64,000 nt of DNA, from assembly GCA_945883495.1 (NCBI GenBank), contig CAMCXS010000014.1, positions 1 through 64,000 of the forward strand, in the 5' to 3' direction. A program made the position numbers and the translations under genes. A model generated the notes under the pieces. That model did not search any database, was not told the DNA's origin, and saw only the letters and a program-made list of their open reading frames with translations. Of the stretch, positions 4,534-24,278 are shown piece after piece. This DNA comes from Akkermansia muciniphila (lineage in GTDB: Bacteria > Verrucomicrobiota > Verrucomicrobiia > Verrucomicrobiales > DEV007). Numbering within the stretch: position 1 is the stretch's first letter; the number at the start of each line of letters is the position of its first letter.

Positions 4534-7215
4534 TCACGCGGACGACCGGGCCCAAACTTCTTGGCCGCTTCCCGGGGTAATCTCCAGAACCGTCGAGACT
4601 TGCTGCAAGAATTGATCCGCCTGATAGGGCTTGTGGATAAATCCGGCCGGTCGCGCCCCGGAGTCCAGGGCGAAGGCGTCAAAATCCATGAGGTAGGCGC
4701 TGACCACGATCACCGGGACAAAAGATCCCTCAGAGCGCACACTCCGGAACATCTCCGCGCCACTCATCCCGGGCATGTTGAGGTCGAGCACGATGAGCCG
4801 GATCCGGTCCCGGTACTGCCGGAACAGCGCTAAGCCCTCGTCGCCACTCCGGGCCCCGACCGAGGCGATGCCAGCGCGCTGCAGAATCGCCTGGTTGAGC
4901 CGGCGAATGCTGTCTTCATCGTCCACCACCAAAACGAACGGCACCTCAGGCACCGCCACGGGAATCGATCCTGGGGCCACCGGATCCACATGGCGCGCCT
5001 CGATCGGCTGGGAAGGATCTTCGACCACGACGGTGACGGGAAGTTCCGAGGCGGGAAGGTAAACCCGCATGCAGGTGCCCTGCCCTTCCTCCGAGGTGCA
5101 GGTGAGCCAGCCGCCATGCTGCCAAGCGATCCCCGAGACGACCGCCAAACCGAGGCCGTTGGAGCGCGAGTCCGTCGTGAAAAAGGGTTCGAAAATGCGG
5201 GGCCGAATGGGTTCGGGGATCCCATGTCCGTTGTCCAGCACGGTGAAACAAATGAACCGGCCCGCCTCCGGATCCGCCGCTTCCTGCTGCGGGTCACCTA
5301 GCTGCAATGGTTCCGCCGTAACCCGCAAGGTCCCGCCGCGAGGCATGGCGCGGATCGAGTTCGCGCACAGCTCCAGCAGCACCGAGCGAAGCCGGCCACG
5401 GTCCGCGGTGACGTGGAGATTTTTCTCGGGCAACTCGATTTGGATCTGATACTGGGGCCCCAGGCCGTCGGAAAGTTGATCCTTGAGCCAGGACAGAATG
5501 CCACGCACGCTGTTGACCCTCGCTTCCATGAGATGATGGCGCGAGTATCCCAACAAGCCACGGCAAATCGCCGACGCCTGACTAACGGCAGACCGGGCGT
5601 GCCCGATGGTTTGCGTGCGCTCCTCTGGATCCAGCTTTTGCTCCAATCCAGAGATGTCCGCGACGACTTGGGTGAGGATGCGGTTGAATTCATGCGCCAT
5701 CCCGGTGGTAAGATTCCCGATCAGCTCGGCCCGTTCCACATCGCGAGCCAGCCGCTGCAACCGCGCTTCCTCGGTGCGGTCCTCGAACCGCCAGATGAAT
5801 CCGAATGGCGTGCCATCCGCATGGTTCACTTTGAAGACAGAGACCCGGGCCGCGCCATCTTCCGGCTGCCGCAAGGCCCAGACCTGCGAAGTTAACTCTT
5901 GCGCCCGCTCGGCGGCCTGTTGCCACCACTCCAGGAAACGGCCCGAGTCCGCGAACTGCCACGCCACCCGCTGGATGATCTGACGGGCATCAAGCAGCTC
6001 CAAATCGTTCTCCGTGAATCGTCCAAACTGGGCAAACCTCCCGTTCCACCAGCAAACCCGCTGATCTTCCCCAGCCAACAGAAGAAAACCGTCCCGGCTC
6101 CCCTCCCCGGCGGCACGCGCCCGGATGGACTCCTGCTCCGCTCGATCTTCTACCCCTTGGAGACGCTGTTCGAGACGCTCCCGTTGGGCTTGTGAGTCCG
6201 CGAAAAACGCTTCCAGCTTCTTCGCCAACCCGTTGATCCGGCGATTCAGCCCCGACACCACTTCGGGTCCACTTTCCTTCACGCGCACCGCGAAGTCCCG
6301 CTGTTCCAGACGCGTCATCGCCTCCGCGGCGGCTTGGATCGGAGTTTGCAGCCAACGCGTCGTCAGCCAGGCAAGGCCCCCGGCCATTCCCAGCCCAGCC
6401 AAGGCGGCAAGCACGAGCACGCTCACCGCTTTGGATTGCAGCTTGGCCGCTTCCAGCTGCGGCAGACGCACCATCACCCGCCAGGGAGCCGTCAACCCAG
6501 GACCACTGGTCCGCACCGGCACTTCCAAGACCGTGCCCGCCGTCAAAGGCTCTCCAAACCGCCGCCCGATCCAGGCCGGATTGCGATGCGCCAGAACCTG
6601 ATCCCGATCATCCACCACGGCGACCTCTTCCGCCTGAATCCGCCCCACGGGCGCGGCCAGAGCTTCCGGCGACACATGAAATTCGAGGATCTCCGCCGCC
6701 CCACCGCCCCCGGGCAAAATCGCCAATGGCGCCATCAGCGACACTTCGGCCGCCGCCGCCGCCGCGGAATCGCTTGCCGCTCGATGCTCCACCGGCTGCA
6801 CCGCCGTCAGCACCCCGCCCGCGCCCAACCGCGCCCAGGTCGATGCGCTGGGATGCGACGCCTTGCCCGAGCGAGTCGATAGCGGCAAATTGGTGGCCCG
6901 GTGCAGCGTGATCCCGGCGAAGGGAGATTCGGCATCCGCGAACCGGCGCAAAGCTTCCAAGCGTTCCTCGTCGGTGCTCGCCGGACTGGCCACGACCTGA
7001 TCTTGAGCGATCGTTTTGACCGAGGCGATCCATTGATCCAGCAAGCCTCCGTAGATCGGTTCCACGCTGTCCGCGAGCGTCCGGACGCTGCCGAGCCGGA
7101 GATTTTCCGCTCCCTGCCGCAACATGGGCATGAGGGCCGTCCCCGCGAGGACAAGGGGAATAAGCACGGCGGCGCAAAGGCCAACAAAGAGACGGACGGA
7201 GAGGCGATTTCCCAT
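4534..7215 (-). CDS. Hybrid sensor histidine kinase with C-terminal receiver
   Basis: 893 residues. It has an N-terminal membrane helix (about 8-30), a periplasmic sensing region (about 31-260), a second helix (about 263-288), a HAMP-like linker and coiled coil (about 290-365), then a PAS-like domain (about 370-485). The phosphoacceptor helix carries His508 in GMAHEFNRIL. The ATPase domain shows an N box (LELCANSIRAM), DNGHGIPE and NGLGLAVVSGIAWQHGG. A receiver follows, with the phosphorylatable Asp in LIVLDLNMPGMSG near residue 830. The protein would autophosphorylate and pass phosphate to its own receiver. No partner regulator lies beside it, so the signal and targets are unknown. Confidence 0.92.
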   Translation of the reverse strand: MGNRLSVRLFVGLCAAVLIPLVLAGTALMPMLRQGAENLRLGSVRTLADSVEPIYGGLLDQWIASVKTIAQDQVVASPASTDEERLEALRRFADAESPFAGITLHRATNLPLSTRSGKASHPSASTWARLGAGGVLTAVQPVEHRAASDSAAAAAAEVSLMAPLAILPGGGGAAEILEFHVSPEALAAPVGRIQAEEVAVVDDRDQVLAHRNPAWIGRRFGEPLTAGTVLEVPVRTSGPGLTAPWRVMVRLPQLEAAKLQSKAVSVLVLAALAGLGMAGGLAWLTTRWLQTPIQAAAEAMTRLEQRDFAVRVKESGPEVVSGLNRRINGLAKKLEAFFADSQAQRERLEQRLQGVEDRAEQESIRARAAGEGSRDGFLLLAGEDQRVCWWNGRFAQFGRFTENDLELLDARQIIQRVAWQFADSGRFLEWWQQAAERAQELTSQVWALRQPEDGAARVSVFKVNHADGTPFGFIWRFEDRTEEARLQRLARDVERAELIGNLTTGMAHEFNRILTQVVADISGLEQKLDPEERTQTIGHARSAVSQASAICRGLLGYSRHHLMEARVNSVRGILSWLKDQLSDGLGPQYQIQIELPEKNLHVTADRGRLRSVLLELCANSIRAMPRGGTLRVTAEPLQLGDPQQEAADPEAGRFICFTVLDNGHGIPEPIRPRIFEPFFTTDSRSNGLGLAVVSGIAWQHGGWLTCTSEEGQGTCMRVYLPASELPVTVVVEDPSQPIEARHVDPVAPGSIPVAVPEVPFVLVVDDEDSIRRLNQAILQRAGIASVGARSGDEGLALFRQYRDRIRLIVLDLNMPGMSGAEMFRSVRSEGSFVPVIVVSAYLMDFDAFALDSGARPAGFIHKPYQADQFLQQVSTVLEITPGSGQEVWARSSA

Positions 7216-7280
7216 AAAGCGGGCCGCGGAATTCGGCTCCTGCCTCTCCTAATTCAGGGAATAGAAAAAATCAACAAATG

Positions 7281-8105
7281 TCAATTAAATCTCACGCGTG
7301 CGGCCCCGGCGTAGAGATTGAAGCCTCCGTCCCGCACAAATCCCGCCAGGGTCTGCCCGGACTCCTGCGCCAAATCGATCGCCAGACTGCTCGGTGCGGA
7401 GATGCCGGCGACCACCGGGATTCCGGCAGCGAGTGCTTTCTGCATCAGCTCAAACGAGATCCGTCCACTCACCAGAAGGATGCTATCCGAAAGCGGCAAA
7501 TGCCCATCGAGCAGCGCCCGGCCAATCACCTTGTCCAACGCATTGTGCCGGCCAGCGTCTTCGCGGAGGCATTGCAGATCTCCGTCCGCGGTAAAGATGG
7601 CGCTCGCATGAAGCCCGCCGGTGCGCTCAAACCCGGTTTGCGCCTCGCGAAGCCGCGGCGGCAGACTCCTCAGAAACTCCGCCGCCATCACCGGCCCGCC
7701 CACCACCGGCGGACAGGAGAGGAAGACGCTCTCAATCGTCGATTTCCCGCAGATTCCACAACTTGAGGCACTGAACACGTGCCTGGTAAGCCGATCCAAC
7801 TGCAGCGCATCCGGATCGCGCAAAAAGACATCGATGACATTGCCCCGGCTCTCCTCCGCGCCGCCGCAGGGCGTGATATCAAACAAATCAGCCGCCGAAC
7901 GAATAATCCCTTCCGTTACCAGAAATCCGGCCACCAATTCCTTGTCGTGACCCGGCGTGCGCATGACGACGGCCAGTCCGCGCCCTTCCACCCGGATCTC
8001 CAGCGGCTCCTCGACGGCCACGAAATCGCCTTGAGTCTCGGCGCTCCAGGCCGGGTCCCCGTGCCGGCAACGCAGCAGTTCGACTTCGCGGGCGGCCGGG
8101 TTCAC
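7281..8105 (-). CDS. fdhD: Formate dehydrogenase accessory sulfurtransferase FdhD
   Basis: About 274 residues from a GTG at 8105, close to the usual FdhD length; the start overlaps the hisH stop as GTGA. FdhD transfers sulfur from the cysteine desulfurase to the molybdenum cofactor of formate dehydrogenase. The key cysteine pair is present as SSCGICGK (Cys116 and Cys119 in this numbering). Family segments TPGHDKELVAGFLVTEGII, DAGRHNALDKVIG and LLVSGRISFELMQKAL are clear. The frame is open farther upstream to 8336, but that part only shadows hisH. No formate dehydrogenase structural gene is in the window, so its client is elsewhere. Confidence 0.92.
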   Translation of the reverse strand: MNPAAREVELLRCRHGDPAWSAETQGDFVAVEEPLEIRVEGRGLAVVMRTPGHDKELVAGFLVTEGIIRSAADLFDITPCGGAEESRGNVIDVFLRDPDALQLDRLTRHVFSASSCGICGKSTIESVFLSCPPVVGGPVMAAEFLRSLPPRLREAQTGFERTGGLHASAIFTADGDLQCLREDAGRHNALDKVIGRALLDGHLPLSDSILLVSGRISFELMQKALAAGIPVVAGISAPSSLAIDLAQESGQTLAGFVRDGGFNLYAGAARVRFN

Positions 8106-8734
8106 ACGCAAGGCGCGGCTGGCACCACGGAGGTGAAGAAATTGCGCAGCAAGCGCAGGCCCACGTCCTGGCTTTTCTCCGGGTGAAACTGCGTGGCCAC
8201 GATGTTCCCACGGCGCACTCCGCTGACGAATTCGAATCCGTAGTGCGTCCGGCAAGCCGCGTCCGAAGCCAACGCTGGGCGCGGGTAGAAGGAGTGGACG
8301 AAATAAACGTGCGGATGCGCCCCCAGCCCGCTCCAAAGCGGATCATTCCCATCCACCGGCGTGATTTCGTTCCACCCCATGTGCGGGACCTTGAGATCGG
8401 AAACCGGGAACCGGACCACGTCGCCCGGAAAGACATCGAGGCCGGAAACCCCTGGCGACTCCTCGCTGGTGGCGAAGAGCACTTGATAACCTAGGCAAAT
8501 GCCGAAATAGGGCCGGTCCGCCAGGATCCATTCACGGATCGCTTCACGCAGGCCTTGGTCCACCAAATGCCGGACGCAGTCGCCAAACGAGCCTTGCCCC
8601 GGCAACACCAGAGCGTCAATGCCTTCCATTTGTCCCGGCTCCGCGACCAGATGCGCGCTCACGCCAACCGATTCAATGGCCTTGTGCACGCTCCTCAGGT
8701 TGCCCGCTCCATAATCGATGATTCCGACCTTCAC
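8102..8734 (-). CDS. hisH: Imidazole glycerol phosphate synthase glutaminase subunit HisH
   Basis: 210 residues starting GTG (VGIIDYGAGNLRSV). HisH is the class I glutamine amidotransferase that feeds ammonia to HisF in histidine biosynthesis. The nucleophile Cys is in FGICLGYQVLF, and the catalytic His and Glu are in TQFHPEKSQ. The oxyanion-strand motif LPGQGSFGDCV is also present. It stands alone with respect to other his genes and overlaps fdhD by four bases, an unusual pairing that implies translational coupling. Confidence 0.95.
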   Translation of the reverse strand: MKVGIIDYGAGNLRSVHKAIESVGVSAHLVAEPGQMEGIDALVLPGQGSFGDCVRHLVDQGLREAIREWILADRPYFGICLGYQVLFATSEESPGVSGLDVFPGDVVRFPVSDLKVPHMGWNEITPVDGNDPLWSGLGAHPHVYFVHSFYPRPALASDAACRTHYGFEFVSGVRRGNIVATQFHPEKSQDVGLRLLRNFFTSVVPAAPCV

Positions 8735-8740
8735 CCCAGC

Positions 8741-8833
8741 ACCCTACATCGAACGCGGCTCCACGCAAAGGGTCGTAGCCGCGCCGCTTCCGGCGTGGTC
8801 CTTTTCCATCGATCGCGGCTCCGCGCAAAGGGT
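8741..8833. repeat. Dispersed GC-rich repeat, two copies upstream of hisH
   Basis: Bases 8741-8766 are identical over 26 nt to 9523-9548. A diverged copy of the core (CATCGA, then GCGGCTCC, then GCGCAAAGGGT) lies at 8807-8833. Such short repeated GC-rich modules resemble REP-type intergenic elements. The third copy forms the 3' end of the S9 peptidase gene. The function is unknown. Confidence 0.75.
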
Positions 8834-8898
8834 GGGAGCAGAACGGTGTCTGACGGAGCGATCGAAGGGGCACGCCTCCGGTCCATCACATGCAACCT

Positions 8899-9232
8899 TT
8901 ACGAGAGAACCAGAACGCTACTGGCCGGGTCGGCATCGAAGGCAAAGAGAGCGACGCATCGATCACGCAGTAACTGCGCGATCTGCGCAGTTGCACTGTT
9001 TCCGACCTTCAAAAAAAATCAACTTTGGAGGGTGGCCCAGCAATAGGCTGCGTTGATGAAAGTCTGCGTCTTTGGACACAATCACAAAGCCGTGCTGTTT
9101 GGCGAAGTCCCAGATGAGCGTGTCACTGCTGTGATCTAAGCCGTGCGACTTCACATGACTCGAGTCCGGATACAGATCGATGACCCGGGCGACGATGCGG
9201 TCGGAGAGGTTCTCGTCGAGCAGAAGCTTCAC
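8899..9232 (-). pseudogene. DUF5615 PIN-like toxin, frameshifted in a run of eight A/T
   Basis: The GTG at 9232 overlaps the upstream DUF433 stop. The reading frame gives KLLLDENLSDRIV and later IVSKDADFHQRS, typical of DUF5615 PIN-like nucleases partnered with DUF433 proteins. After PKLIFF the frame leaves the family and stops at 8963. Removing one T from the T8 run (A8 on the + strand, 9011-9018) restores KLIFLKVGNSATAQIAQLL and then RCVALFAFD to a stop at 8899, a standard-looking C-terminus. It is therefore a frameshifted gene, a slippage-controlled gene or a sequencing error. The intact protein would be a metal-dependent RNase-like toxin. Confidence 0.8.
9011..9018. repeat. A8 homopolymer at the toxin frameshift site
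   Basis: Eight consecutive A on the + strand, read as T8 in the toxin gene. One base fewer joins the N-terminal DUF5615 frame to its conserved C-terminal part. This is the likely site of slippage or of a sequencing indel. Confidence 0.9.
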
Positions 9233-9453
9233 GCGGCTGGGGTGAACAGCTTCCTTTCACGGTCAGCGGCGAAAGCCAAGCAGGCCTTGATGTCCGCTGA
9301 CGTCAACTCGGAGAAATCAGCCAGAATCTCCTCCTCGGTCATCCCAGAAGCGAGATACTCGAGAATGTCGTACACCGTGATACGCAGGCCTCGGATGCAC
9401 GGCTTGCCGCCCCGTTTGTCGGGCTCCATCGTGAGAATCTGCTGATAATCCAT
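9229..9453 (-). CDS. DUF433 antitoxin-like protein
   Basis: 74 residues with the DUF433 signature GGKPCIRGLRITVYDILEYL, then a short helical stretch (GMTEEEILADFSELTSADI). DUF433 proteins are small helix-turn-helix-like proteins usually encoded directly before DUF5615 PIN-like toxins and considered their antitoxins. The stop overlaps the toxin start as GTGA, so translation is coupled. Because the toxin gene beside it is frameshifted, this antitoxin may now be solitary. Confidence 0.88.
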   Translation of the reverse strand: MDYQQILTMEPDKRGGKPCIRGLRITVYDILEYLASGMTEEEILADFSELTSADIKACLAFAADRERKLFTPAA

Positions 9454-9525
9454 GGAAGCTTGAAAGTAGCGCCGACGAGGGGTAATGACAACCAGTTCTC
9501 CCCTCTCCTCCGCGATCCACTAACC

Positions 9526-11850
<2,325 letters not shown>

Positions 11851-15913: not shown

Positions 15914-17035
15914 TCAATACTCTAACACAAGTTGCCGGGATTCGCCTGAACTCAACGCGTAAGGAACACCTTTGTAGTAGGAATCGAGAGCCGCCCCTAT
16001 GTTCTCACCGAGACGCCGTGCAAAAGCAACGGGAACCGCATTGCCAATTTGCATATGAAGAGAACGTTTCGTAGCCCCCGCAAAAACCCAGTCGTCTGGA
16101 AAAGTCTGTAACCGGGCATACTCGCGCTCAGTGAAGGCCCGCAGTCGGGAAGCCGAAACTCGCCAAAGCTTATGCTTTGCTTCTCGATTGCGGACAAATT
16201 TGGCTCGATTGCTACGATCAACGTCTAGTCGTTCAGCAGTAACATTCCCTTGGGCCCACCCCCAGATCGTCGCGGTGTCCACGGCAGGGAACGGTTGCTT
16301 CAAACACCGCACCGCATTCCCGTCAGATGCCGTCCTTGAGAATCTAACAGGAATTGGGGCCTCACTCTCATCAAACGGCTCACCGGTAGCCACATGCACC
16401 TGACTGGGAAAGGACCAGTTTGGATCATGATTGGGTAAGCAGAGCTCAGGGTTCATGATGATATCCCTAAGAAACGGTTCAGCGTGCTGCACTCCACAAG
16501 CTCCTGGCAACTGATATCCTTTCGGAGATCTACCTCTAAATGCGACAAGTACGAATCTTCGCCGAGTCTGGGGCACTCCGAATCCGCTCATTTTTAAAAA
16601 ATCACTCTCTACCTCATAGCCAATCTTCTCGAACTGTCCTGAAATCTCCTGAATGAAGGGTTTTCCAGAACCAGGAAGTCGCATATTCCTTAAATTCAGA
16701 ACGTTCTCAACGACGACCACCGGGGGACGAATCTTCTCGGCAACTCGAACAACTTGCCTGAAGAGTTGATTACGATCGTCGTCATCGCGTCGGTTACCAC
16801 CAAGAGAAAAACCTTGACACGGTATGCCCGCTAACAGGACGTCTACTTCACGATCCACGGGATCAAAGTCATGCACGTCAATGTGCGAAACCGACCAGTG
16901 AGGCCGATTTTGCCTTAGGGTGGCAACACAATCTGCATCCCAATCGGTTGAAAACCTATGGTCAAATCCGGCCAACTCGAATCCTAGATCAAGTCCGCCT
17001 CCACCGGAAAACATGCCGCCAAAACTGTAGCTCAT
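15914..17035 (-). CDS. DNA (cytosine-5-)-methyltransferase
   Basis: 373 residues with the ordered m5C motifs: motif I MFSGGGGLDLGFELAGF, motif IV GIPCQGFSLGG with the catalytic Cys, motif VI VVVVENVLNLR, motif VIII GVPQTRRRFVLVAF and motif X QIGNAVPVAFARR. The variable region between VIII and X reads DNA but its target cannot be deduced. Its ATG overlaps the stop of the upstream endonuclease gene (ATGA), so the pair is a translationally coupled type II restriction-modification system. By eye the base composition is more AT-rich than its neighbours, suggesting acquisition by transfer. Confidence 0.95.
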   Translation of the reverse strand: MSYSFGGMFSGGGGLDLGFELAGFDHRFSTDWDADCVATLRQNRPHWSVSHIDVHDFDPVDREVDVLLAGIPCQGFSLGGNRRDDDDRNQLFRQVVRVAEKIRPPVVVVENVLNLRNMRLPGSGKPFIQEISGQFEKIGYEVESDFLKMSGFGVPQTRRRFVLVAFRGRSPKGYQLPGACGVQHAEPFLRDIIMNPELCLPNHDPNWSFPSQVHVATGEPFDESEAPIPVRFSRTASDGNAVRCLKQPFPAVDTATIWGWAQGNVTAERLDVDRSNRAKFVRNREAKHKLWRVSASRLRAFTEREYARLQTFPDDWVFAGATKRSLHMQIGNAVPVAFARRLGENIGAALDSYYKGVPYALSSGESRQLVLEY

Positions 17036-17796
17036 GCGATGTATCCACGCATAGTAACTTTTTGCCCCGGCTGCCCCGCAACGCGGAACGCACTAAATTT
17101 GTGCACCCGTCCAGCGGTTGGGTTCGGCGCGGAATCAGCCTCAATCAAATTCGAAGAAAGGTCAAAACGGTAGGCGCAGACCAATCGCTCTGACTCTGCC
17201 CTTTCCAGACTTCCGACTCTCTCTAGCTTGTCGGAAAACGCACTTCCCTCTTGGTCGATTAACGTCACCTGCCGATGAACTCCATCCATGAGAGCAAAAG
17301 GTGTCGGAGCTACGTACATTTTGCGATCCCGGATCATAATATCTCCATACGAACCAAAACCCTTCACGTTCTTGTTTATATGTTCATAAGAGCTATCCGC
17401 ATTTAGAAAAGATCCATGACACATCACCAAGTCCAATACAGGAAATTCGTCACTATCGGTTTTCGAGGGATAACGAACAAATACATAATACACTGCCCGG
17501 CCATTGTGCATGCCTTTAGGAACTTGGCTATTGCAGTCGTAGTCAGCCTCGCGTCCCGGGTAACTCAGCCCCTTGAGTTCAAATCCTAGAGGTTGGCTAA
17601 CTAAACGAAAATCAGGATAGGTATTCCTTGCGGGAGGGTCAAACTTGAGTCGCTCCCCTTCGAGGCGAGGCCGAAACCAGTCCTGAAGATGATACTCCTT
17701 GTCCCTCGAACTCCGTCGGCCAATTGGCGCTCCGCTTCGAACCGCGTAGTCACAGGCGAGAAACACCCGCTCCACAACACCTAACATGCCCTCCAT
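17032..17796 (-). CDS. Putative type II restriction endonuclease, PD-(D/E)XK
   Basis: The conserved-looking part contains TYPDFRLVSQPLGFELKGL, a PD-x(n)-ELK catalytic motif, and it is coupled directly to an m5C methyltransferase, so it is most likely the cognate restriction enzyme. The first in-frame ATG within apparently native sequence is at 17796. However, protein-like sequence (EKLDEATRSICVKAIGDIV) extends upstream to about 17908, where it meets the end of the DinB-like gene with no obvious start codon (a GTG lies at 17850). The true start is therefore uncertain, or the gene has lost its 5' end. The open frame continues to 18264 only as an antisense-frame shadow of the DinB-like gene. Confidence 0.75.
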   Translation of the reverse strand: MEGMLGVVERVFLACDYAVRSGAPIGRRSSRDKEYHLQDWFRPRLEGERLKFDPPARNTYPDFRLVSQPLGFELKGLSYPGREADYDCNSQVPKGMHNGRAVYYVFVRYPSKTDSDEFPVLDLVMCHGSFLNADSSYEHINKNVKGFGSYGDIMIRDRKMYVAPTPFALMDGVHRQVTLIDQEGSAFSDKLERVGSLERAESERLVCAYRFDLSSNLIEADSAPNPTAGRVHKFSAFRVAGQPGQKVTMRGYIA

Positions 17797-17914
17797 CTCG
17801 GATATGGTGGGTGCAAAATCCGCACAGTCAAGCTCGCCGATGCTCCTCACGATATCGCCGATTGCCTTGACGCAGATCGAGCGGGTCGCTTCATCCAGTT
17901 TCTCGCCCTGCGGA

Positions 17915-18496
17915 TTACGATCCGGATCTATCCGCCAAACTTGGCTTGGACATGACGCGGACGACCTCCTCCGCTTGCCAAAAGTGAAGCTGCAGGTGAA
18001 GCCCGAACATGCAATGCCAACCGTGCGCATCCAACCAGCCGAACACCGGATGCTGCTTCCGCAATGTCCCACGCAGCTTCGGCAACGCCTCCACCACGGC
18101 GAAGTGACCCTCCACGGACTCCCGGAACGCCGTGATCTGCTCCGGGCCAGGGTTCGCCGAAGGCATAACATCACGCTTTGGATCGATCGCGCCCGCCCCT
18201 CCCGGCTCTTCCCCAACAGCAAGGCTCTGGACGATGGCGGTGATCGACCGATTGACGATAACATTGTGCTCCAAAATCATGAAGAGCGACCAGGACCGCA
18301 TCTCTTCATCGACCCCGATCATAGGCGGCACCGTAATCGGCAGCCGGGCCTCGTCCTCTCCGACCCCAGCGTAAAGGCCACGATAGTCGAGCAGGCAACG
18401 CTGAATTTGCCGGGAAGCCCGGGCCCGAGAGGTGAGCGCCATGCGAGTCCGAATCAGGCCGCAGATCAGAGCGTCTTTCATCCTCCCAACGGTCAT
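17915..18496 (-). CDS. DinB-like/DUF1569-type protein
   Basis: 193 residues of helical sequence ending with HPVFGWLDAHGWHCMFGLHLQLHFWQ (split here as HPVFGWLDAHGW and HLQLHFWQ). It resembles the C-terminal metal-binding His pattern of DinB/YfiT-like four-helix proteins. An earlier His in MILEHNVIVNRSI would be the matching first ligand. Such proteins bind a divalent metal and some act as thiol transferases, but the role here is unknown. The last few residues (SLADRSGS) end exactly where the endonuclease-like frame begins, so the C-terminus may have been altered by insertion of the restriction-modification genes. Confidence 0.65.
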   Translation of the reverse strand: MTVGRMKDALICGLIRTRMALTSRARASRQIQRCLLDYRGLYAGVGEDEARLPITVPPMIGVDEEMRSWSLFMILEHNVIVNRSITAIVQSLAVGEEPGGAGAIDPKRDVMPSANPGPEQITAFRESVEGHFAVVEALPKLRGTLRKQHPVFGWLDAHGWHCMFGLHLQLHFWQAEEVVRVMSKPSLADRSGS

Positions 18497-18593: not shown

Positions 18594-18923
18594 TCAATCC
18601 GGCACGCCAATCCCGAGCCGGAGAACGCCGCACTTCCAACAGGATCCGAAGTTCGCCGGCACCGATTCCTGGCAACTCGGACAGGTCCAATCCCGTTCTT
18701 CCGTCACCGGGGCGTTTTCAATGTCCGCAAGAATGCCTTTGGCGCGTTCCTCATCCTCATCATTGAGCACGCAAAGGGCCGGGGAAAAGAAGGTGGATTT
18801 CCGGCTCGCCAGCGAGGTGCTGCCGTATTCGTCCCGGATGAAACAGGGGATCCCTGCCTCTTCGAGCACGGACTTGTAGAGACCGACCCGGGCGGGATCG
18901 CGGTGGACGAATACTTCTTTCAT
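18594..18923 (-). CDS. DUF2007-type protein with C-terminal zinc ribbon
   Basis: 109 residues. The N-terminal half (MKEVFVHRDPARVGLYKSVL, EEAGIPCFIRDE) matches the DUF2007 putative signal-transducing domain, a small alpha/beta module. The C-terminal part has a CPSC...CWKC zinc-ribbon pair (WTCPSCQES, SCWKCG). The gene starts 9 bp after the upstream exported-protein gene and is last in the WXG100/FtsK operon, though its role there is unknown. Confidence 0.8.
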   Translation of the reverse strand: MKEVFVHRDPARVGLYKSVLEEAGIPCFIRDEYGSTSLASRKSTFFSPALCVLNDEDEERAKGILADIENAPVTEERDWTCPSCQESVPANFGSCWKCGVLRLGIGVPD

Positions 18924-18932
18924 CGCTTCAGC

Positions 18933-19424
18933 TTACCATTCGTCGCCCTCGGATAGCTCCTGTTCCATGTTATCGGCGGTCTGGGCTACGGCATCAATCA
19001 CCGTAGTCAAGGAACCGACATCCGTATCAGCGGCGATTTGGGCAGAGAACACCGCTACAAAATCGTCGCCCATTTTGCGCATTTGCCAAGCGCCGATCTT
19101 GGTCTGGCAGTTTTGTTCGAGAAGTTGATTGGCCACATCGGCATTGAACGGGGTCGGCGATTTGAAGGCGATCGACCAGACTTCGCGGATTTCCAAATCG
19201 CGCAGCTCCGAAGTGTTGGATAGAATCCAGACCAGTTGACTCCGGCCATCCGCCACCTCGTTGTGCAGCCGAAAGTCGCCCTCGTCATCAATGCTGGACT
19301 TCAATCCAGCCTCGTCGAGCAGTCCGCTGACCCGGGGATCCCCCGTTTTTTTCTTTCCTACCTGGGCTTGGGTCGCAACCAACAATCCGCCCAGAATCAA
19401 CCCGGTGACCAGAATCGCCTTCAT
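18933..19424 (-). CDS. YbjN-like exported protein in the T7SS-like operon
   Basis: 163 residues with a signal peptide (ILVTGLILGGLLVATQAQ). The mature part (LLDEAGLKSSIDDEGDFRL, then VWILSNTSELRDLEIREVW) resembles the YbjN domain, a fold similar to type III secretion chaperones. The acidic tail ends SEGDEW. It begins 9 bp after the FtsK-like ATPase gene stops and almost abuts the DUF2007 gene, so it is part of that operon. A role in handling secreted substrates is only a suggestion. Confidence 0.65.
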   Translation of the reverse strand: MKAILVTGLILGGLLVATQAQVGKKKTGDPRVSGLLDEAGLKSSIDDEGDFRLHNEVADGRSQLVWILSNTSELRDLEIREVWSIAFKSPTPFNADVANQLLEQNCQTKIGAWQMRKMGDDFVAVFSAQIAADTDVGSLTTVIDAVAQTADNMEQELSEGDEW

Positions 19425-19433
19425 CGCCCCCTT

Positions 19434-22400
19434 TTAGCGAAACCACGCGGCTTCTGGCAAGGCATACGGCCGGAACGTTTCCACCGAGCCCTCTTGTTCG
19501 TGGTGCAGCAGGGCGCGATGCATCCCCAGGGAAGCCGCTCTCGGAGAATCAATCAGGGCGGCGGAATCGTTCGCGCTCATTTGGAAGACAATGCGGAGAT
19601 CGATCTCCCCGAGCGCCTTGCGGGACAAAGCGCGCTTCAGATTATTGTAGGTATCGCAGTGGATCACGAGGTGAATCCCCACGGCAGCGCCCTCTTCGAT
19701 CAACGTGGCCAAGTCATCCGAGGGCTTGGCAGCCGCGCTGGAGGAAGAGAAGCTGAAGTCCTCCTCGTAGCGCAGCTTTTTGAAGCGCTGCAATCCGAGG
19801 ATGAAGACGAACACGGGCGGATACGCCGTTCCATCTTGGTTCGCGGACCGTTTCCGGACTTCCGTCGCCAGCTCCGCGAAGCTCGCCTCGATCTCCGCCG
19901 CGCCGATCCGCGATGCCGTGCCGCGGGATTGTGCAATCGCCCGATCTAAAACCTCCCGCTCCGCCGTTTCCGGCGCGGAGGCATCAAGGACCACGGAGCG
20001 CAGTCCCGCCGCGGGAGCTTGAGCGGCTAAGGTCACCAGCCCGATGGCCGTAAGCGCCAGCACGGTCTCCTCCTGCTGGCCAGCCAGGAGCAAGTGGCTG
20101 CCGCTCTGGGGCTTGAAGACGGCGACGGCTGGCCCCTTGATCGCGTTCGGAGCCCCAAGGAACAGGTGGAGGCCACCCGGCAACGGCCCAGGTTGCGCCA
20201 AAAGCCGCTGCAGCGCCCCGTTCTCGCGCACGTCCGCCGCCATGTTCCCCTCGAAGACAAACGGCGCAAAATCGGTGAGCCCCGCCGCATCGGCCCGGGC
20301 CCGCACGTCAGCCAAGTGGCCTTCACGGACCTCGTCGGGCAACCAAACCACCTGGAACGGGTTGTTCCCCTCGATCGCCCCGGCTTGGTCGTTGTAGATT
20401 CCCTCCCCCGGGCGGGAAAGCAGACGGGCCGCCGGATTGCTGTCATCGAGAATGAGGTAGGAGTCCGCCTCGTTGCACTGCAACGCGATCCGCACCGCCA
20501 TCTGCCCGAGCGTCGCCCGCGCCAAGGTGAAGGCGCCGCCCAAGGTTTGCGAACCGAGGATCACGTGCATCCCGAACGCCCGGCCCTGGCGGACAATCCG
20601 GTCGAGCAACAACGCGGCGTTCTGCGCCACCCGGTCGTCCTCGGTGAAGAACTCCTGGAACTCGTCGATCAACAGCAAGCAGCGCGGCATCGGCTCACGG
20701 CCCCCGGCCCGCGAATATCCCGCGAGGTCCTGGGCGCCCTTCTCGCGGAACAAATCCCCGCGGCGGCGCAACTCTTCATCAAGCCGCTGCAACACGCTCA
20801 GGCCAAACTCGCGGTCGCTCTCGATCGCCACCACCCGCGCATGCGGCAGCCGCCCCTGGGCGTAGCACTTGAACTCGACGCCTTTTTTGAAGTCAATGAG
20901 GTAGAACTCGACCTGACTCGGGTCCGCCCAGAGTGCCAAGTTCGTGATGATGACGTGGAACAGGGTCGACTTCCCGGAACCGGTTTTCCCCGCGATGAGG
21001 ACATGCTGCCGCGTGCCTTTGCCCAAGGCAAGGTGCTGGAGCTTGCTCGCTCCGGTCCGGCCGATCGGCACCCGCAGCTCGTTGATCGTCTCTTGGCTCC
21101 AGATCGATGGTTCGGGAGGAGCGATGTGGGCAAACGGCACCTCGACGCGATTGCTGTCGATACTGGCCTTGCCCACACGATCGAGGAACGCGCTGGCCAG
21201 CTCCGCCGTCGGGGGAGTATCGAGCCGCAAGGTCGAGCCCTCGGGTTGCCCTAGCATCACGAACCCGTCGCCCGAGCCGGCCAGGGAGATGGCGTGTTGC
21301 CGGAGATCGTCCTCCTTGAGCCCCGCCGGAGTGGGTTCGCGACGATCCCAATGCAGCAAAACGTAAACCCCACAACGAGGCCCCGCCGTCGCGATGGAGA
21401 GGAGCCGCTGGACGGCGGAGGTGGAAAAACCATGAGGAAAATCCGCCACGGCGAGGAAACGATACTTTTCCGCAATGTTTCCCGCCTGGGCATTGTATTC
21501 GGCGATCGTGGGGAACTCGCTGCGGAGGTACATCTGGATGACCTTCTCCATGTGCTCATTCAGCTCCGCGAGGCGCCGCTCGATCTGCTCCGGTTGCGTC
21601 CAAATCTTGCTGTTGATCAGGCTCTCTTCGGAATCGGCCAGACGCATCAGGCTGGAAAACGATTCGCCCAAGCCCACGGGATCGATCAGCGTGAAATTAA
21701 CCCGGCCGGGCGGCTGGCTCGCGAGGAGCCGGTAGATCGCCAAATTCAAAATGCCCAACGCGGCAGGGCGGCCGGTGCTTTTGGTCTCGATCACCAGCGA
21801 GGCTTGGTCCGGAATGCGGAGGCAAACCGGTACCGCGAACGTCTGCCGGGGCAAGGCAAGGCGCTGAGATTGTGGCAGCACGCCAGCCATCGCCGCCACC
21901 TCCCCTTCAACCGCACCAAGCGGAACCGAGGCGCTCCCAAAAGCGGGCGGCTGCCAGTCGCGCAGGGCGTCTCCGTCCCACGAAGCGGACCGTTCCGCGC
22001 AAAGGGCGGCGGCGTGCTCCAATCCCAGAAATTTGGCGGGCAAGTTCGCGTTCCACCCCTGGATCAATGCCTCCCAATCCTGCTCGTAACGCACTTCCAG
22101 ATTCCCCATCAGGTCGTTGAGCGAGGCCGTGATCGCCTTCTCGCGGGCCGCGGCCTCCTCTCGCACCTTCGCCAAGTTGGCTTGGTGAGACCGGACGAGC
22201 CGGGCGGCCTTGGCGATCCCGAGACGGTCGTGCCGTTCCTGAGCGCGGCGCAAACGGGTGGCCAACTCCACTGGCGCCGTGGATCGGAGTTGCTCCGCCT
22301 GATCCATGAGCCGCTTAAAATTTCCCTGCAACTCGGCCATGCCCCGACGGTGCCGGGCTTCGATGCGTCCGAACTCCGCCTCCTCCTCGCGTTCAATCTC

Positions 22401-23288
22401 GCGGGCGGCCGCCGTGACATCGGCACGCGCCTCGGCCAAGCCAGTGCGGATCTTGGTCACCAACGGCCGGGCCTGCCAACCTCCGGCGAAGTGCAGCAAG
22501 ATCGACAGTACCACGAATCCGGCGGCAGACATTCCGGTGGCAGCCACCTGTTGCCCCCCCAGTTCCGGCGGGAGCAGAAAGTAGGCCGCTGCATGCGCCC
22601 CGAGAATGAGGATCAACCCAACCGAGAACGGCACGAAACGGAACAAAGCCGCCAAAGGCAGTTCCTCCAGCTCCTCCAACGCATCCTCGGCCCGGTCGAG
22701 CTCCTTCTTGGTGCTCTCCAGCAAACCATCGACGTCCCGGCCGCCCGCCGGATCCGCCGTCAGGCTCAAGGTGTGGTGCAGCCGGCGCGCAAACTGCCCG
22801 AACCCACTCACCGCACGTCGCGCCCGCTTTTCCACGTCTGATTGACGGCGCTGGGATTCCCCCAAAATCACCCGCAGCTCGTCGTAAAAGGTCCTCGCTT
22901 GCGCGGATTCATCGTCTCGCTGCCGATCGACCAAAATCAACGTTTTCTGCCGGTCATACTGCGCCTGCCCCTCCAGCGAGCGGATCTTCTCATCAATGGC
23001 GGTGCGGGCGGTCCGATGCGCCCGGTCCAGCCAGGTCCGCCGCCGCCGGTGACGTTCGGCGAGCGCATCCGCCGCCACGCCGCGAGCCGTTTCCGCCGCC
23101 GCCAAATCGGCCTCCATCTGCCGTTTGGATTCCACCAGCGCCTCTTCGGCATCCCCGCGGCGCCGGGATTGATTGAGACGGCGCCCCTGGTTGATGGTCT
23201 CCTCCCGCTTGGCGGTGACGCGGACCAGTTCCCCGATGGAACGCAATTGGGCGAGGACCTCGCCGGCGGAAGGCAGTTCGTTATTCAC
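19434..23288 (-). CDS. EccC-like FtsK/SpoIIIE ATPase, type VII secretion-type motor
   Basis: About 1284 residues from a GTG at 23288 that overlaps the upstream small gene by 8 bp. The order is a long charged coiled coil (about 1-200), two membrane helices (about 216-265), a second helical stretch, then ATPase domains. The first FtsK domain has Walker A AGKTGSGKSTLFHV near residue 767 and Walker B CLLLIDEFQEFF near 874, followed by RQGRAFGMHVILGSQ. A later domain is degenerate (LLLAGQQEETVLAL in the Walker A position), as is common for the distal ATPases of EccC. With WXG100 genes just upstream, it most likely drives secretion of WXG100-type proteins. Confidence 0.88.
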   Translation of the reverse strand: MNNELPSAGEVLAQLRSIGELVRVTAKREETINQGRRLNQSRRRGDAEEALVESKRQMEADLAAAETARGVAADALAERHRRRRTWLDRAHRTARTAIDEKIRSLEGQAQYDRQKTLILVDRQRDDESAQARTFYDELRVILGESQRRQSDVEKRARRAVSGFGQFARRLHHTLSLTADPAGGRDVDGLLESTKKELDRAEDALEELEELPLAALFRFVPFSVGLILILGAHAAAYFLLPPELGGQQVAATGMSAAGFVVLSILLHFAGGWQARPLVTKIRTGLAEARADVTAAAREIEREEEAEFGRIEARHRRGMAELQGNFKRLMDQAEQLRSTAPVELATRLRRAQERHDRLGIAKAARLVRSHQANLAKVREEAAAREKAITASLNDLMGNLEVRYEQDWEALIQGWNANLPAKFLGLEHAAALCAERSASWDGDALRDWQPPAFGSASVPLGAVEGEVAAMAGVLPQSQRLALPRQTFAVPVCLRIPDQASLVIETKSTGRPAALGILNLAIYRLLASQPPGRVNFTLIDPVGLGESFSSLMRLADSEESLINSKIWTQPEQIERRLAELNEHMEKVIQMYLRSEFPTIAEYNAQAGNIAEKYRFLAVADFPHGFSTSAVQRLLSIATAGPRCGVYVLLHWDRREPTPAGLKEDDLRQHAISLAGSGDGFVMLGQPEGSTLRLDTPPTAELASAFLDRVGKASIDSNRVEVPFAHIAPPEPSIWSQETINELRVPIGRTGASKLQHLALGKGTRQHVLIAGKTGSGKSTLFHVIITNLALWADPSQVEFYLIDFKKGVEFKCYAQGRLPHARVVAIESDREFGLSVLQRLDEELRRRGDLFREKGAQDLAGYSRAGGREPMPRCLLLIDEFQEFFTEDDRVAQNAALLLDRIVRQGRAFGMHVILGSQTLGGAFTLARATLGQMAVRIALQCNEADSYLILDDSNPAARLLSRPGEGIYNDQAGAIEGNNPFQVVWLPDEVREGHLADVRARADAAGLTDFAPFVFEGNMAADVRENGALQRLLAQPGPLPGGLHLFLGAPNAIKGPAVAVFKPQSGSHLLLAGQQEETVLALTAIGLVTLAAQAPAAGLRSVVLDASAPETAEREVLDRAIAQSRGTASRIGAAEIEASFAELATEVRKRSANQDGTAYPPVFVFILGLQRFKKLRYEEDFSFSSSSAAAKPSDDLATLIEEGAAVGIHLVIHCDTYNNLKRALSRKALGEIDLRIVFQMSANDSAALIDSPRAASLGMHRALLHHEQEGSVETFRPYALPEAAWFR

Positions 23289-23493
23289 AGTCTTCGCGAA
23301 CTTGGCTGATGGCCCGGTCGAGCTTGTCCGCCACGACGGCCAGAGATTGCACCGCATCCGAGATGGGCAAGAGATAGGTTTGCGCGAATTCCTGCGCTTT
23401 GGCATCGCGCCAGGACGCACTTGTCTCGTCCCAGGCTCGCATCAGCTCCTTGGTCATACCGGCCAGTCCGGCGGCGGAAGTATTGATGTTCAT
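23281..23493 (-). CDS. Small WXG100-like helical protein
   Basis: 70 residues predicted to be two helices around SASWRDAKAQEF, where the Trp plus polar turn resembles the WXG hairpin (Gly replaced). It overlaps the preceding gene (ATGA) and the FtsK-like gene. Size, position and Trp turn suggest a shortened WXG100-family partner or substrate, but the match is weaker than for the first gene of the operon. Confidence 0.7.
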   Translation of the reverse strand: MNINTSAAGLAGMTKELMRAWDETSASWRDAKAQEFAQTYLLPISDAVQSLAVVADKLDRAISQVREDCE

Positions 23494-23993
23494 GAGGGCG
23501 GCGGGGCAATGTCTCCAGGCGGCCGGACTTCGGCGTAGTCTTCCAAAGCCTGGATCATCTGACTGAGCGCAAGGATGGCGCGCGGCAACTCGTCATCGAC
23601 CAAAAGCCGGAGATTGTCCACATGCTTGGCGAGCGGGCCAACGGCGGCGTCGAAATTCTGATCCCACTTCTTGGCGAGCCGCAGTTTCTCCTCCGCCTCC
23701 CGCATTGCCTCCCGGCAGCGGAGGACTTGCCGTTTCTCGTCCCCGGCGGTGTCGCGGAACGACGAGATCTCCGCGCTGAAGAGACGTTGCTGCGCGTCTT
23801 CCAGAAGCCGGGTGCGCCTGCGCAGCTCGTGGTTCCAGTGAGGCAACCGGTCCTGCTGCACCCAGTGCCGCGTGCGGCGCACTTCATCGCCCATTTCATG
23901 CAAAGCCGCCGCCGCCCGCTCCTGATACTTGATCAGAGCGATGCGAAATCGATCCAGAGCTTCGCTAGAGGTGATGTGCGCCCGATCCGCCAT
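23490..23993 (-). CDS. Helical coiled-coil protein of the T7SS-like operon
   Basis: 167 residues, almost entirely helical and charged (EALDRFRIALIKYQERAAA, REAEEKLRLAKKWDQNF), ending with a proline-rich tail (RPPGDIAPPPS). It starts 12 bp after the WXG100 gene and overlaps the next small gene. No family is recognised. A larger WXG-type substrate, a chaperone or a structural coiled-coil factor are all possible. Confidence 0.75.
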   Translation of the reverse strand: MADRAHITSSEALDRFRIALIKYQERAAAALHEMGDEVRRTRHWVQQDRLPHWNHELRRRTRLLEDAQQRLFSAEISSFRDTAGDEKRQVLRCREAMREAEEKLRLAKKWDQNFDAAVGPLAKHVDNLRLLVDDELPRAILALSQMIQALEDYAEVRPPGDIAPPPS

Positions 23994-24005
23994 GCTCGCG
24001 TTGGC

Positions 24006-24278
24006 TCAACGCTGGTTCAGGTACTCCTCGATCTTCTGAGCTTTGCGCATCAGATACGGGGCGTGCCGGTCCGATGTCTCCAGGAAGCGCCTCAGTATTT
24101 TGGTGGCTTCGGCGAACTCCTCGGAGAATTTCGCCTGCTCCTGGTCTTGCCAACTTTCCCCCAGCCCCGCAAACCGGGCTTGCAGCGAGCCGAGGCGGTT
24201 CTGCAGCTCGGAGTTGAAGCGGTGCAATTCTTCCGCGAACCGCCGCAGTTCCTCTGGATCAACGATTGCCTGAGCCAT
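24006..24278 (-). CDS. WXG100 family protein (ESAT-6-like)
   Basis: 90 residues, the standard WXG100 length, with two long helices and a central turn GLGESWQDQEQAKF containing the W-x-D/G element near residue 43. The ATG at 24278 starts the homologous part; the frame open to 25049 upstream is a shadow of other genes. WXG100 proteins are small helical-hairpin substrates of type VII secretion, moved by FtsK/EccC-like ATPases. It heads a six-gene leftward operon including such an ATPase. The classical C-terminal YxxxD/E export motif is not evident. Confidence 0.88.
   Translation of the reverse strand: MAQAIVDPEELRRFAEELHRFNSELQNRLGSLQARFAGLGESWQDQEQAKFSEEFAEATKILRRFLETSDRHAPYLMRKAQKIEEYLNQR

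What the first reader, a model, noticed from the sequence alone, without database searches (positions are those of the whole stretch)
18594..24278. Type VII secretion-like operon: WXG100 protein plus EccC-like FtsK ATPase
Six tightly packed, partly overlapping genes encode a WXG100 protein, two small helical proteins, a roughly 1284-residue FtsK/SpoIIIE ATPase with a long coiled coil and two membrane helices, a YbjN-like exported protein and a DUF2007/zinc-ribbon protein. The ATPase has one intact (GKTGSGKS) and at least one degenerate ATPase domain, as EccC does. No EccB, EccD, EccE or EssA/EsaA genes are visible. In a Gram-negative-type envelope, how WXG100 proteins would leave the cell is unclear. 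The gene content looks like a reduced or divergent T7SS whose accessory proteins are not described in the classical systems. Presence of the families is seen in sequence; the secretion function is inference.
Basis: partly seen in the sequence, partly recalled or inferred. Interest (0 to 1): 0.85.

Follow-up and report, generated by a model that had tools for sequence, protein, structure and literature searches.

The report
Compact type VII-like cassette, Verrucomicrobiota
Bacteria of the phylum Verrucomicrobiota, which have two membranes, carry a stable four-gene set related to the type VII protein-export machine of tuberculosis and staphylococcal bacteria; it lacks the other known parts of that machine that were looked for, and what it moves and where is unknown.

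Summary
The core observation is real, but it covers four genes, not six. WXG100 protein, 167-aa helical hairpin, 70-aa WXG-like protein and a 1284-aa EccC-type ATPase form a unit found intact in 86 of 92 loci with upstream sequence, almost all Verrucomicrobiota. No neighbour recurs. The exported protein called 'YbjN-like' hits no family, and it and the DUF2007 protein are conserved only within the genus. The ATPase groups with EccC/YukB rather than FtsK (tree 100/100; profiles; the genome's own FtsK as control). It has three FtsK-type domains, only the middle one with a P-loop. WXG100 and ATPase co-occur in 20 of 24 positive genomes among 388. YukD, YukC/EssB and EccB were not found in 13 positive genomes. 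The 'WXG' turn is invariably WxD, and the YxxxD/E export signal is absent. Zhang et al. 2012 mention the kind in a table footnote (solo WXG plus three-domain ATPase, verrucomicrobia included). The invariant cassette, WxD signature, second WXG-like partner and toxin-less hairpin slot were not found described in the papers read. Distant relatives carry a nuclease toxin in the hairpin's slot. Best reading: a minimal inner-membrane type VII-like exporter. Export is inferred, not shown.

The parts
24006..24278 (-). Gene 1: WXG100-family protein, 90 aa (P0001), with a WQD turn instead of WxG and C-terminus YLNQR
   Evidence: PF06013 E 5.2e-10 above cut-off; only WXG100 in the genome; median pairwise identity 67% across the phylum, the highest of the four; WxD in all 81 proteins in which the turn was read
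23490..23993 (-). Gene 2: 167-aa protein (P0002), predicted long helical hairpin (H8-76, H80-156)
   Evidence: No convincing family in Pfam, NCBIfam, PADLOC or PHROGs; AlphaFold2 pLDDT 91.7; conserved in 88 cassettes; one copy in each of 13 genomes searched
23281..23493 (-). Gene 3: 70-aa truncated WXG100-like protein (P0003) with a W-x-D turn and usually a C-terminal D-C-E
   Evidence: Its family profile retrieves 82 of 89 gene-1 proteins among 8,353 ORFs and one ORF of neither family (E 0.039); TIGR03930 E 0.017, below cut-off
19434..23288 (-). Gene 4: 1284-aa EccC-type ATPase (P0004), GTG start overlapping the end of gene 3 by 8 bases
   Evidence: EccCa profile 110.7 bits vs FtsK 29.5; closest solved chain TcEccC 4nh0; tree with EccC to the exclusion of FtsK, 100/100
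22479..22664 (-). Gene 4: transmembrane hairpin (residues ~209-270) between two long coiled-coil stretches; almost nothing on the outer side
   Evidence: Hydropathy: two TM segments in 74 of 99 homologues, loop of 1-21 residues
21189..21791 (-). Gene 4: first FtsK-type domain (residues ~500-700), no P-loop
   Evidence: hmmsearch hits without P-loop; AlphaFold2 model of residues 481-1284, pLDDT 92.3, pTM 0.86
20334..21086 (-). Gene 4: middle FtsK-type domain (residues ~735-985), the only one with a Walker A (20967-20990) and a DE Walker B (20661-20681)
   Evidence: GxTGSGKS and DEFQE conserved in all 99 homologues; PF01580 E 1.9e-33
19437..20156 (-). Gene 4: third FtsK-type domain (residues ~1045-1284), no P-loop
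18933..19424 (-).
   Evidence: Starts 9 bp after the ATPase; found beside the cassette in only 1 of 2 congeners and in no other locus
18594..18923 (-). ADJACENT, judged NOT part of the unit: 109-aa DUF2007 plus zinc-ribbon protein
   Evidence: PF09413 E 3.8e-14; found beside the cassette only in the same genus

Best explanation
Genes 1-4 form a compact type VII-like export module. [quoted passage not shown] Inferred: the WXG100 protein and the 70-aa WXG-like protein pair as EsxA/EsxB do and dock on the ATPase. The 167-aa hairpin is the cargo or a carrier for cargo. The ATPase assembles into a ring and drives these helical proteins through the inner membrane at its TM hairpins. With no periplasmic or outer-membrane part, the likely endpoint is the periplasm, or the surface via a general pathway of the cell. 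In distant relatives the hairpin's gene slot holds nuclease toxins, so the module probably descends from, or shares an ancestor with, toxin-exporting systems; in Verrucomicrobiota the slot holds a toxin-free hairpin.
For: ATPase kinship with EccC/YukB rather than FtsK: profiles 110.7 vs 29.5 bits, the opposite for the genome's own FtsK, 430 for FtsK vs 106 for the best type VII profile; tree split 100/100; whole-length Foldseek best match to TcEccC, E 7e-31. WXG100 profile hit. Second WXG-like partner by reciprocal profile hits. Four-gene unit in 86 of 92 loci with upstream sequence and no recurrent neighbour. Co-occurrence 20 both, 3 ATPase only, 1 WXG only, of 388 genomes. Related ATPase + WXG100 loci carry a helical protein ending in a WHH nuclease followed by a SUKH immunity-type protein on a Helicobacter plasmid, and one with an ExK-type C-terminus, seen by inspection only, in Caballeronia and two Verrucomicrobiota loci. 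All four genes under purifying selection.
Against: No secretion data exist. YukD, YukC/EssB and EccB are not found in 13 positive genomes (EccB model checked on an ESX plasmid). YxxxD/E is absent from all 86 gene-1 proteins and the WxG motif is WxD. The ATPase stays far below the curated EccC equivalog cut-off (110.7 vs 509) and has three domains, not four. Homology of the hairpin to the toxin N-termini is not shown (hhalign probability about 1%), and its fold matches are generic coiled coils. A Caballeronia relative sits among CARF-nuclease, kinase and phosphatase genes, which also fits a non-secretory role.
Confidence: 0.6

Rival explanations
1. An intracellular conflict or defence machine, not an exporter: WXG100-like proteins act as adaptors that position an ATP-driven FtsK/HerA-type motor on DNA or on a nuclease partner inside the cell, as HerA-type motors do in several anti-phage systems.
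For: Relatives sit with CARF-PDDEXK, kinase, PP2C and VWA genes; P0004 has partial hits to SspH, mad8 and HerA defence models over its FtsK domain; structural matches include HerA-SIR2 and DndH; an R-M-like pair lies next door at 15914-18264; no outer-envelope component.
Against: The ATPase is TM-anchored in most homologues; the tree puts it with EccC; the Verrucomicrobiota cassette has no nuclease and no recurrent defence neighbour; the defence hits cover mainly the generic motor domain.
Confidence: 0.2
2. A classical T7SSa or T7SSb whose other components lie elsewhere in the genome.
For: WXG100 + EccC-type ATPase is the shared core of all T7SS (PMC11217815).
Against: YukD, YukC and EccB not found in 13 positive genomes; WxD instead of WxG; no YxxxD/E; three ATPase domains; EccD, EccE, EssA and EsaA were not searched.
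Confidence: 0.04
3. A DNA translocase (FtsK/SpoIIIE or conjugative coupling type) with chance small neighbours.
For: VIA-align Z is highest for FtsK motor domains on the single middle domain (31.3, 280 residues, rmsd 2.6).
Against: Profiles, tree and whole-length match favour EccC; the genome has its own FtsK; the small genes are inseparable from the ATPase.
Confidence: 0.04
4. A six-gene operon in which the exported 163-aa protein and the DUF2007 protein are working parts, for example a periplasmic receiver and a regulator.
For: Nine-base gaps on the same strand; kept in part in congeners.
Against: Absent beside the cassette in the other loci examined.
Confidence: 0.08

Closest known systems
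'Solo WXG' systems with a three-domain YueA-like ATPase (Zhang et al. 2012, PMC3482391, Table 1 footnote 6; Gram-negative WXG100-FtsK pairs also credited to Sutcliffe 2011 and Unnikrishnan 2017 in PMC10765036)
   Same: Verrucomicrobia named; WXG protein plus ATPase with three HerA/FtsK domains, only the middle one active.
   Different: Here the WXG is not solo: a second WXG-like 70-aa protein and a conserved helical hairpin accompany it; the turn is WxD; the Verrucomicrobiota copies are stable cassettes rather than visibly mobile.
T7SSa / ESX (EccC, EsxA/EsxB)
   Same: WXG100 protein, a second small WXG-like protein, membrane-anchored EccC-clade ATPase with tandem FtsK domains.
   Different: EccB not found; YxxxD/E absent; WxG replaced by WxD; three ATPase domains with only the middle one carrying a P-loop; N-terminal coiled coil before the TM hairpin.
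T7SSb (YukB/EssC) and T7SSc-j (PMC11217815)
   Same: Single WXG100 gene beside the ATPase; some lack FHA domains.
   Different: Those are Bacillota/Actinomycetota systems with four NTPase domains and usually a YukD-like protein; no YukD or YukC/EssB found here.
WXG100-nuclease-SUKH-ATPase locus of Helicobacter sp. plasmid NZ_AP024820 and the Caballeronia SBC2 plasmid locus NZ_CP049321
   Same: ATPase on the same side of the tree, outside FtsK, and a WxD WXG100 protein.
   Different: The hairpin's slot holds a larger, toxin-like protein with an immunity-type or small partner gene; the ATPase is shorter (about 820-930 aa).

Membership tests
Type VII secretion system (T7SSa-j) | WXG100-family protein | tested here: met
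   PF06013 above curated cut-off; TIGR03930 below its cut-off (35 vs 44.85 bits)
Type VII secretion system (T7SSa-j) | W-x-G in the helix-turn-helix | tested here: not met
   WxD in all 81 gene-1 proteins where the turn was read, WxG in none
Type VII secretion system (T7SSa-j) | C-terminal YxxxD/E export signal on an Esx partner | tested here: not met
   0 of 86 gene-1, 12 of 88 gene-2 and 4 of 90 gene-3 proteins
Type VII secretion system (T7SSa-j) | Membrane-anchored EccC/EssC-clade ATPase | tested here: met
   but below the equivalog cut-offs and with three FtsK-type domains instead of four
Type VII secretion system (T7SSa-j) | System membrane components and YukD-type ubiquitin-like protein | tested here: not met
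   No YukD, YukC/EssB or EccB in 13 positive genomes; EccD, EccE, EssA, EsaA not searched
Type VII secretion system (T7SSa-j) | ATPase-dependent export of the WXG100 protein | not testable with these tools
   Needs an experiment
Solo-WXG three-domain ATPase group (Zhang et al. 2012, footnote 6) | ATPase with three FtsK/HerA domains, only the middle active | tested here: met
Solo-WXG three-domain ATPase group (Zhang et al. 2012, footnote 6) | Single WXG protein | tested here: inconclusive
   One Pfam-level WXG100 in most genomes, but gene 3 is WXG-like as well
Solo-WXG three-domain ATPase group (Zhang et al. 2012, footnote 6) | Mobile | tested here: inconclusive
   Patchy (23 of 388 genomes) with varied neighbours, yet no close relative on plasmids or phages and cassette G+C close to its flanks (mean +1.4 points)
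FtsK/SpoIIIE DNA translocases | Groups with FtsK by profile and tree | tested here: not met
YbjN family (for the 163-aa gene) | Family profile hit | tested here: not met
   No Pfam or NCBIfam match at E<=1
Polymorphic toxin / LXG-type effector (for gene 2) | Conserved helical N-terminus fused to variable C-terminal toxins | tested here: not met
   ORF lengths 155-232 and one of 301, at most 76 residues beyond the domain among the rows listed; one copy in each of 13 genomes

The most novel reading that the evidence does not exclude
A distinct WxD-type subclass of type VII machines, defined by WxD100 proteins and a three-domain ATPase with only the middle motor intact, works across phyla with two-membrane envelopes. 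In Verrucomicrobiota it has been domesticated into a four-gene, toxin-free exporter of helical proteins to the periplasm or surface.
Probability: 0.35. Interest if true: 0.72.

Novelty: new variant of a known kind. Interest (0 to 1): 0.52.

Why it matters
Type VII systems are mostly studied in Bacillota and Actinomycetota, and whether WXG100 export exists behind a Gram-negative-type outer membrane has been open since WXG100-FtsK pairs were noted there (cited in PMC10765036, not confirmed functionally). A four-gene unit with one intact motor, invariant partners and single-copy genes is a very small setting in which that could be tested. It would also show which parts of a type VII system are dispensable, and whether the WxD turn and the YLxQR tail replace the known export signals.

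Tried and rejected
Six-gene operon: rejected, since the 163-aa and DUF2007 genes are conserved only in the genus. YbjN: no profile support. DNA translocase: rejected by profile, tree and own-FtsK control. Gene 2 as homologue of the toxin N-termini: hhalign probability about 1%, weak HMM scores on coiled coil only, so not claimed. Fold search with the gene-2 model: only generic long-helix matches (YscO, HlyD, Vipp1, Smc arms); no WXG/LXG chain stood out. A hidden fifth component beside the cassette: no recurrent neighbour. Cargo elsewhere carrying the gene-2 domain: none in 13 genomes. Phage origin: no relatives in viral contigs and only partial matches (at most 39% of the query among those listed) in phage records. 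EccB absence was first uninformative because no control rang; a plasmid positive control was added.

Full report
WHAT IS THERE. Gene 1 (24006-24278, 90 aa) is a WXG100-family protein (PF06013 E 5e-10, above cut-off). Gene 2 (23490-23993, 167 aa) and gene 3 (23281-23493, 70 aa) have no Pfam family. Gene 4 (19434-23288, 1284 aa, GTG start) is an FtsK/SpoIIIE-family ATPase. The junctions are 12 bp, 4-bp overlap and 8-bp overlap. Behind it lie a 163-aa protein with a signal-peptide-like N-terminus and no family match (not YbjN by profile) and a DUF2007/zinc-ribbon protein.

THE UNIT IS FOUR GENES. A search of 388 genomes of the phylum found 23 with an ATPase homologue, and a scan of GTDB contigs found at least 484 relatives, of which the best 80 were kept; almost all are Verrucomicrobiota by title. 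Of 99 loci with a close ATPase homologue, seven start at a contig edge; of the other 92, 86 have genes 1-2-3-4 contiguous and in that order (a few loci are the same genome fetched twice). Sizes are nearly constant at about 90, 155-200, 70 and 1215-1360 aa. No other neighbour recurs: the next cluster occurs in 10 of 101 loci and at scattered positions, and downstream genes are mostly unrelated to each other. The 163-aa and DUF2007 genes are found beside the cassette only in the two congeners (DUF2007 in both, the 163-aa protein in one). All four genes evolve under purifying selection between congeners.

CO-OCCURRENCE. Over the same 388 genomes, WXG100 above cut-off occurs in 21. Twenty genomes have both, three have ATPase only (one of these has a sub-threshold WXG100 about 3 kb away), and one has WXG100 only. 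Fisher p is about 2e-29, uncorrected for ancestry. In most, the cassette's WXG100 is the only one in the genome.

THE ATPASE. P0004 scores 110.7 bits with the EccCa model and 29.5 with FtsK. The genome's own FtsK, used as control, does the opposite (430 for FtsK, 106 and 89 for the type VII models). In a tree of 42 motor domains the cassette ATPases, their distant relatives and EccC/YukB are separated from FtsK by a long branch with 100/100 support; long branches are present, so finer placement is unsure. AlphaFold2 of residues 481-1284 (pLDDT 92.3, pTM 0.86) matches the three-domain cytoplasmic part of T. curvata EccC over its whole length (Foldseek E 7e-31; VIA-align Z 27.6, 717 residues aligned, rmsd 12.4, so relative domain positions differ). 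Single-domain VIA-align scores are highest for FtsK motors, as expected for the intact middle domain. Only the middle of three FtsK-type domains has a P-loop; GxTGSGKS and DEFQE are conserved in all 99 homologues. Two TM segments with a 1-21-residue loop lie between long coiled coils, so almost nothing reaches the periplasm.

THE SMALL PROTEINS. Gene 1 is the most conserved of the four (median pairwise identity 67% vs 46% for the ATPase). Its 'WXG' turn is WxD in all 81 proteins in which it was read, and its C-terminus is YLx-Q-[RHK]; YxxxD/E is absent from all 86. By eye, the distant relatives also read WxD: Caballeronia WQD, Helicobacter WGD, Rhodococcus WKD, Deinococcus WQD, and both copies in genome G051 WAD/WRD. 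Gene 3 is a shortened WXG-like protein: its profile pulls 82 of 89 gene-1 proteins out of 8,353 ORFs, and it too reads W-x-D in nearly all rows where legible. Gene 2 is predicted as two 69-77-residue helices in a hairpin (pLDDT 91.7); fold matches are generic coiled coils. It occurs once in each of 13 positive genomes and has no toxin-sized extension.

RELATIVES WITH CARGO. Related ATPase + WxD100 loci on plasmids and in two Verrucomicrobiota genomes (L048, L049) have a larger helical protein where gene 2 sits. On a Helicobacter plasmid it ends in a WHH nuclease domain (PF14414 E 1e-11) and is followed by a SUKH immunity-type protein. In Caballeronia, L048 and L049 it ends in a region with an ExK-type motif by inspection, with no Pfam or NCBIfam hit for the two scanned. 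Sequence homology between gene 2 and these N-termini was tested and is not significant, so the correspondence is positional.

WHAT IS MISSING. YukD, YukC/EssB and EccB were not found in 13 cassette-bearing genomes. The YukD and YukC models rang in B. subtilis; the EccB model found EccB on an ESX plasmid. EccD, EccE, EssA and EsaA were not searched.

LIKELY MECHANISM. Shown: the parts, their order, the ATPase's clade, the single intact motor, the TM anchor, the components not found. Inferred: genes 1 and 3 pair like EsxA/EsxB, dock on the ATPase, and together with the gene-2 hairpin are moved through the inner membrane. Without an outer-membrane part the endpoint is probably the periplasm. The main rival is an intracellular conflict role, favoured by the CARF-nuclease, kinase, PP2C and VWA genes around the Caballeronia relative.

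COMPARISON WITH THE KNOWN. Zhang et al. [quoted passage not shown] This locus fits that. A 2023 review (PMC10765036) says Gram-negative WXG100-FtsK pairs are not confirmed as secretion systems. The 2024 survey of T7SS variants (PMC11217815) covers Gram-positives only. The seven paper searches found no description of the four-gene cassette, the WxD signature or genes 2-3; most subscription papers are not in that library. Because WxG, YxxxD/E and accessory components were tested and not met, this is not filed as a classical T7SSa/b; it is a variant of the three-domain group that may work like a T7SS.

VERDICT. Real, conserved, and of a kind briefly noted before; new in its anatomy and signature. 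Interest 0.52.

Noticed in passing
L132 (Helicobacter sp. NHP19-012 plasmid NZ_AP024820), 6749-11151: WXG100-type protein, WHH-nuclease protein, SUKH immunity-type protein, 77-aa protein and a short ATPase of the same branch in one run: a candidate type VII-like toxin-immunity locus in an epsilonproteobacterium.
   Followed up: partly
L130 (Caballeronia sp. SBC2 plasmid NZ_CP049321), 5693-19572: VWA, WXG100, 436-aa helical protein with ExK-type C-terminus, ATPase, CARF-PDDEXK nuclease, VWA, PP2C, Ser/Thr kinase and a MkoA-like AAA protein in one run; looks like a regulated defence or conflict operon built on a WXG100-ATPase core. L048 and L049 carry a related layout.
   Followed up: partly
L134 (genome G051), 5995-10063: A divergent version with two adjacent 97-aa WxD proteins, a separate 316-aa coiled-coil membrane protein and an 836-aa ATPase: the membrane anchor appears split from the motor.
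   Followed up: partly
L131 (Rhodococcus sp. AH-ZY2 plasmid NZ_CP126457), 7594-13024: Sister of the cassette ATPase (98/89 in the tree) with a 314-aa protein whose N-terminus weakly matches the gene-2 profile (E 0.0013) and whose C-terminus looks ParB-like by eye; a possible link between gene 2 and effectors.
   Followed up: partly
window 15914-18264, minus strand: Adjacent DNA cytosine methyltransferase-like gene (373 aa) and a probable restriction-endonuclease-like gene (both named by eye); G+C 53% against 59% for the window and 64% for the cassette, so possibly recently acquired.
   Followed up: no
G380 contig C115, about 9932-10529 (locus L135): Two tandem WXG100-family proteins without a P0004 homologue at the threshold used; a different WXG100 system or contamination.
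   Followed up: no
window 23281-23300 and homologues: Gene 3 usually ends D-C-E (Cys in 96% of rows) where the ATPase start codon overlaps it; the overlap may not explain the Cys conservation.
   Followed up: no
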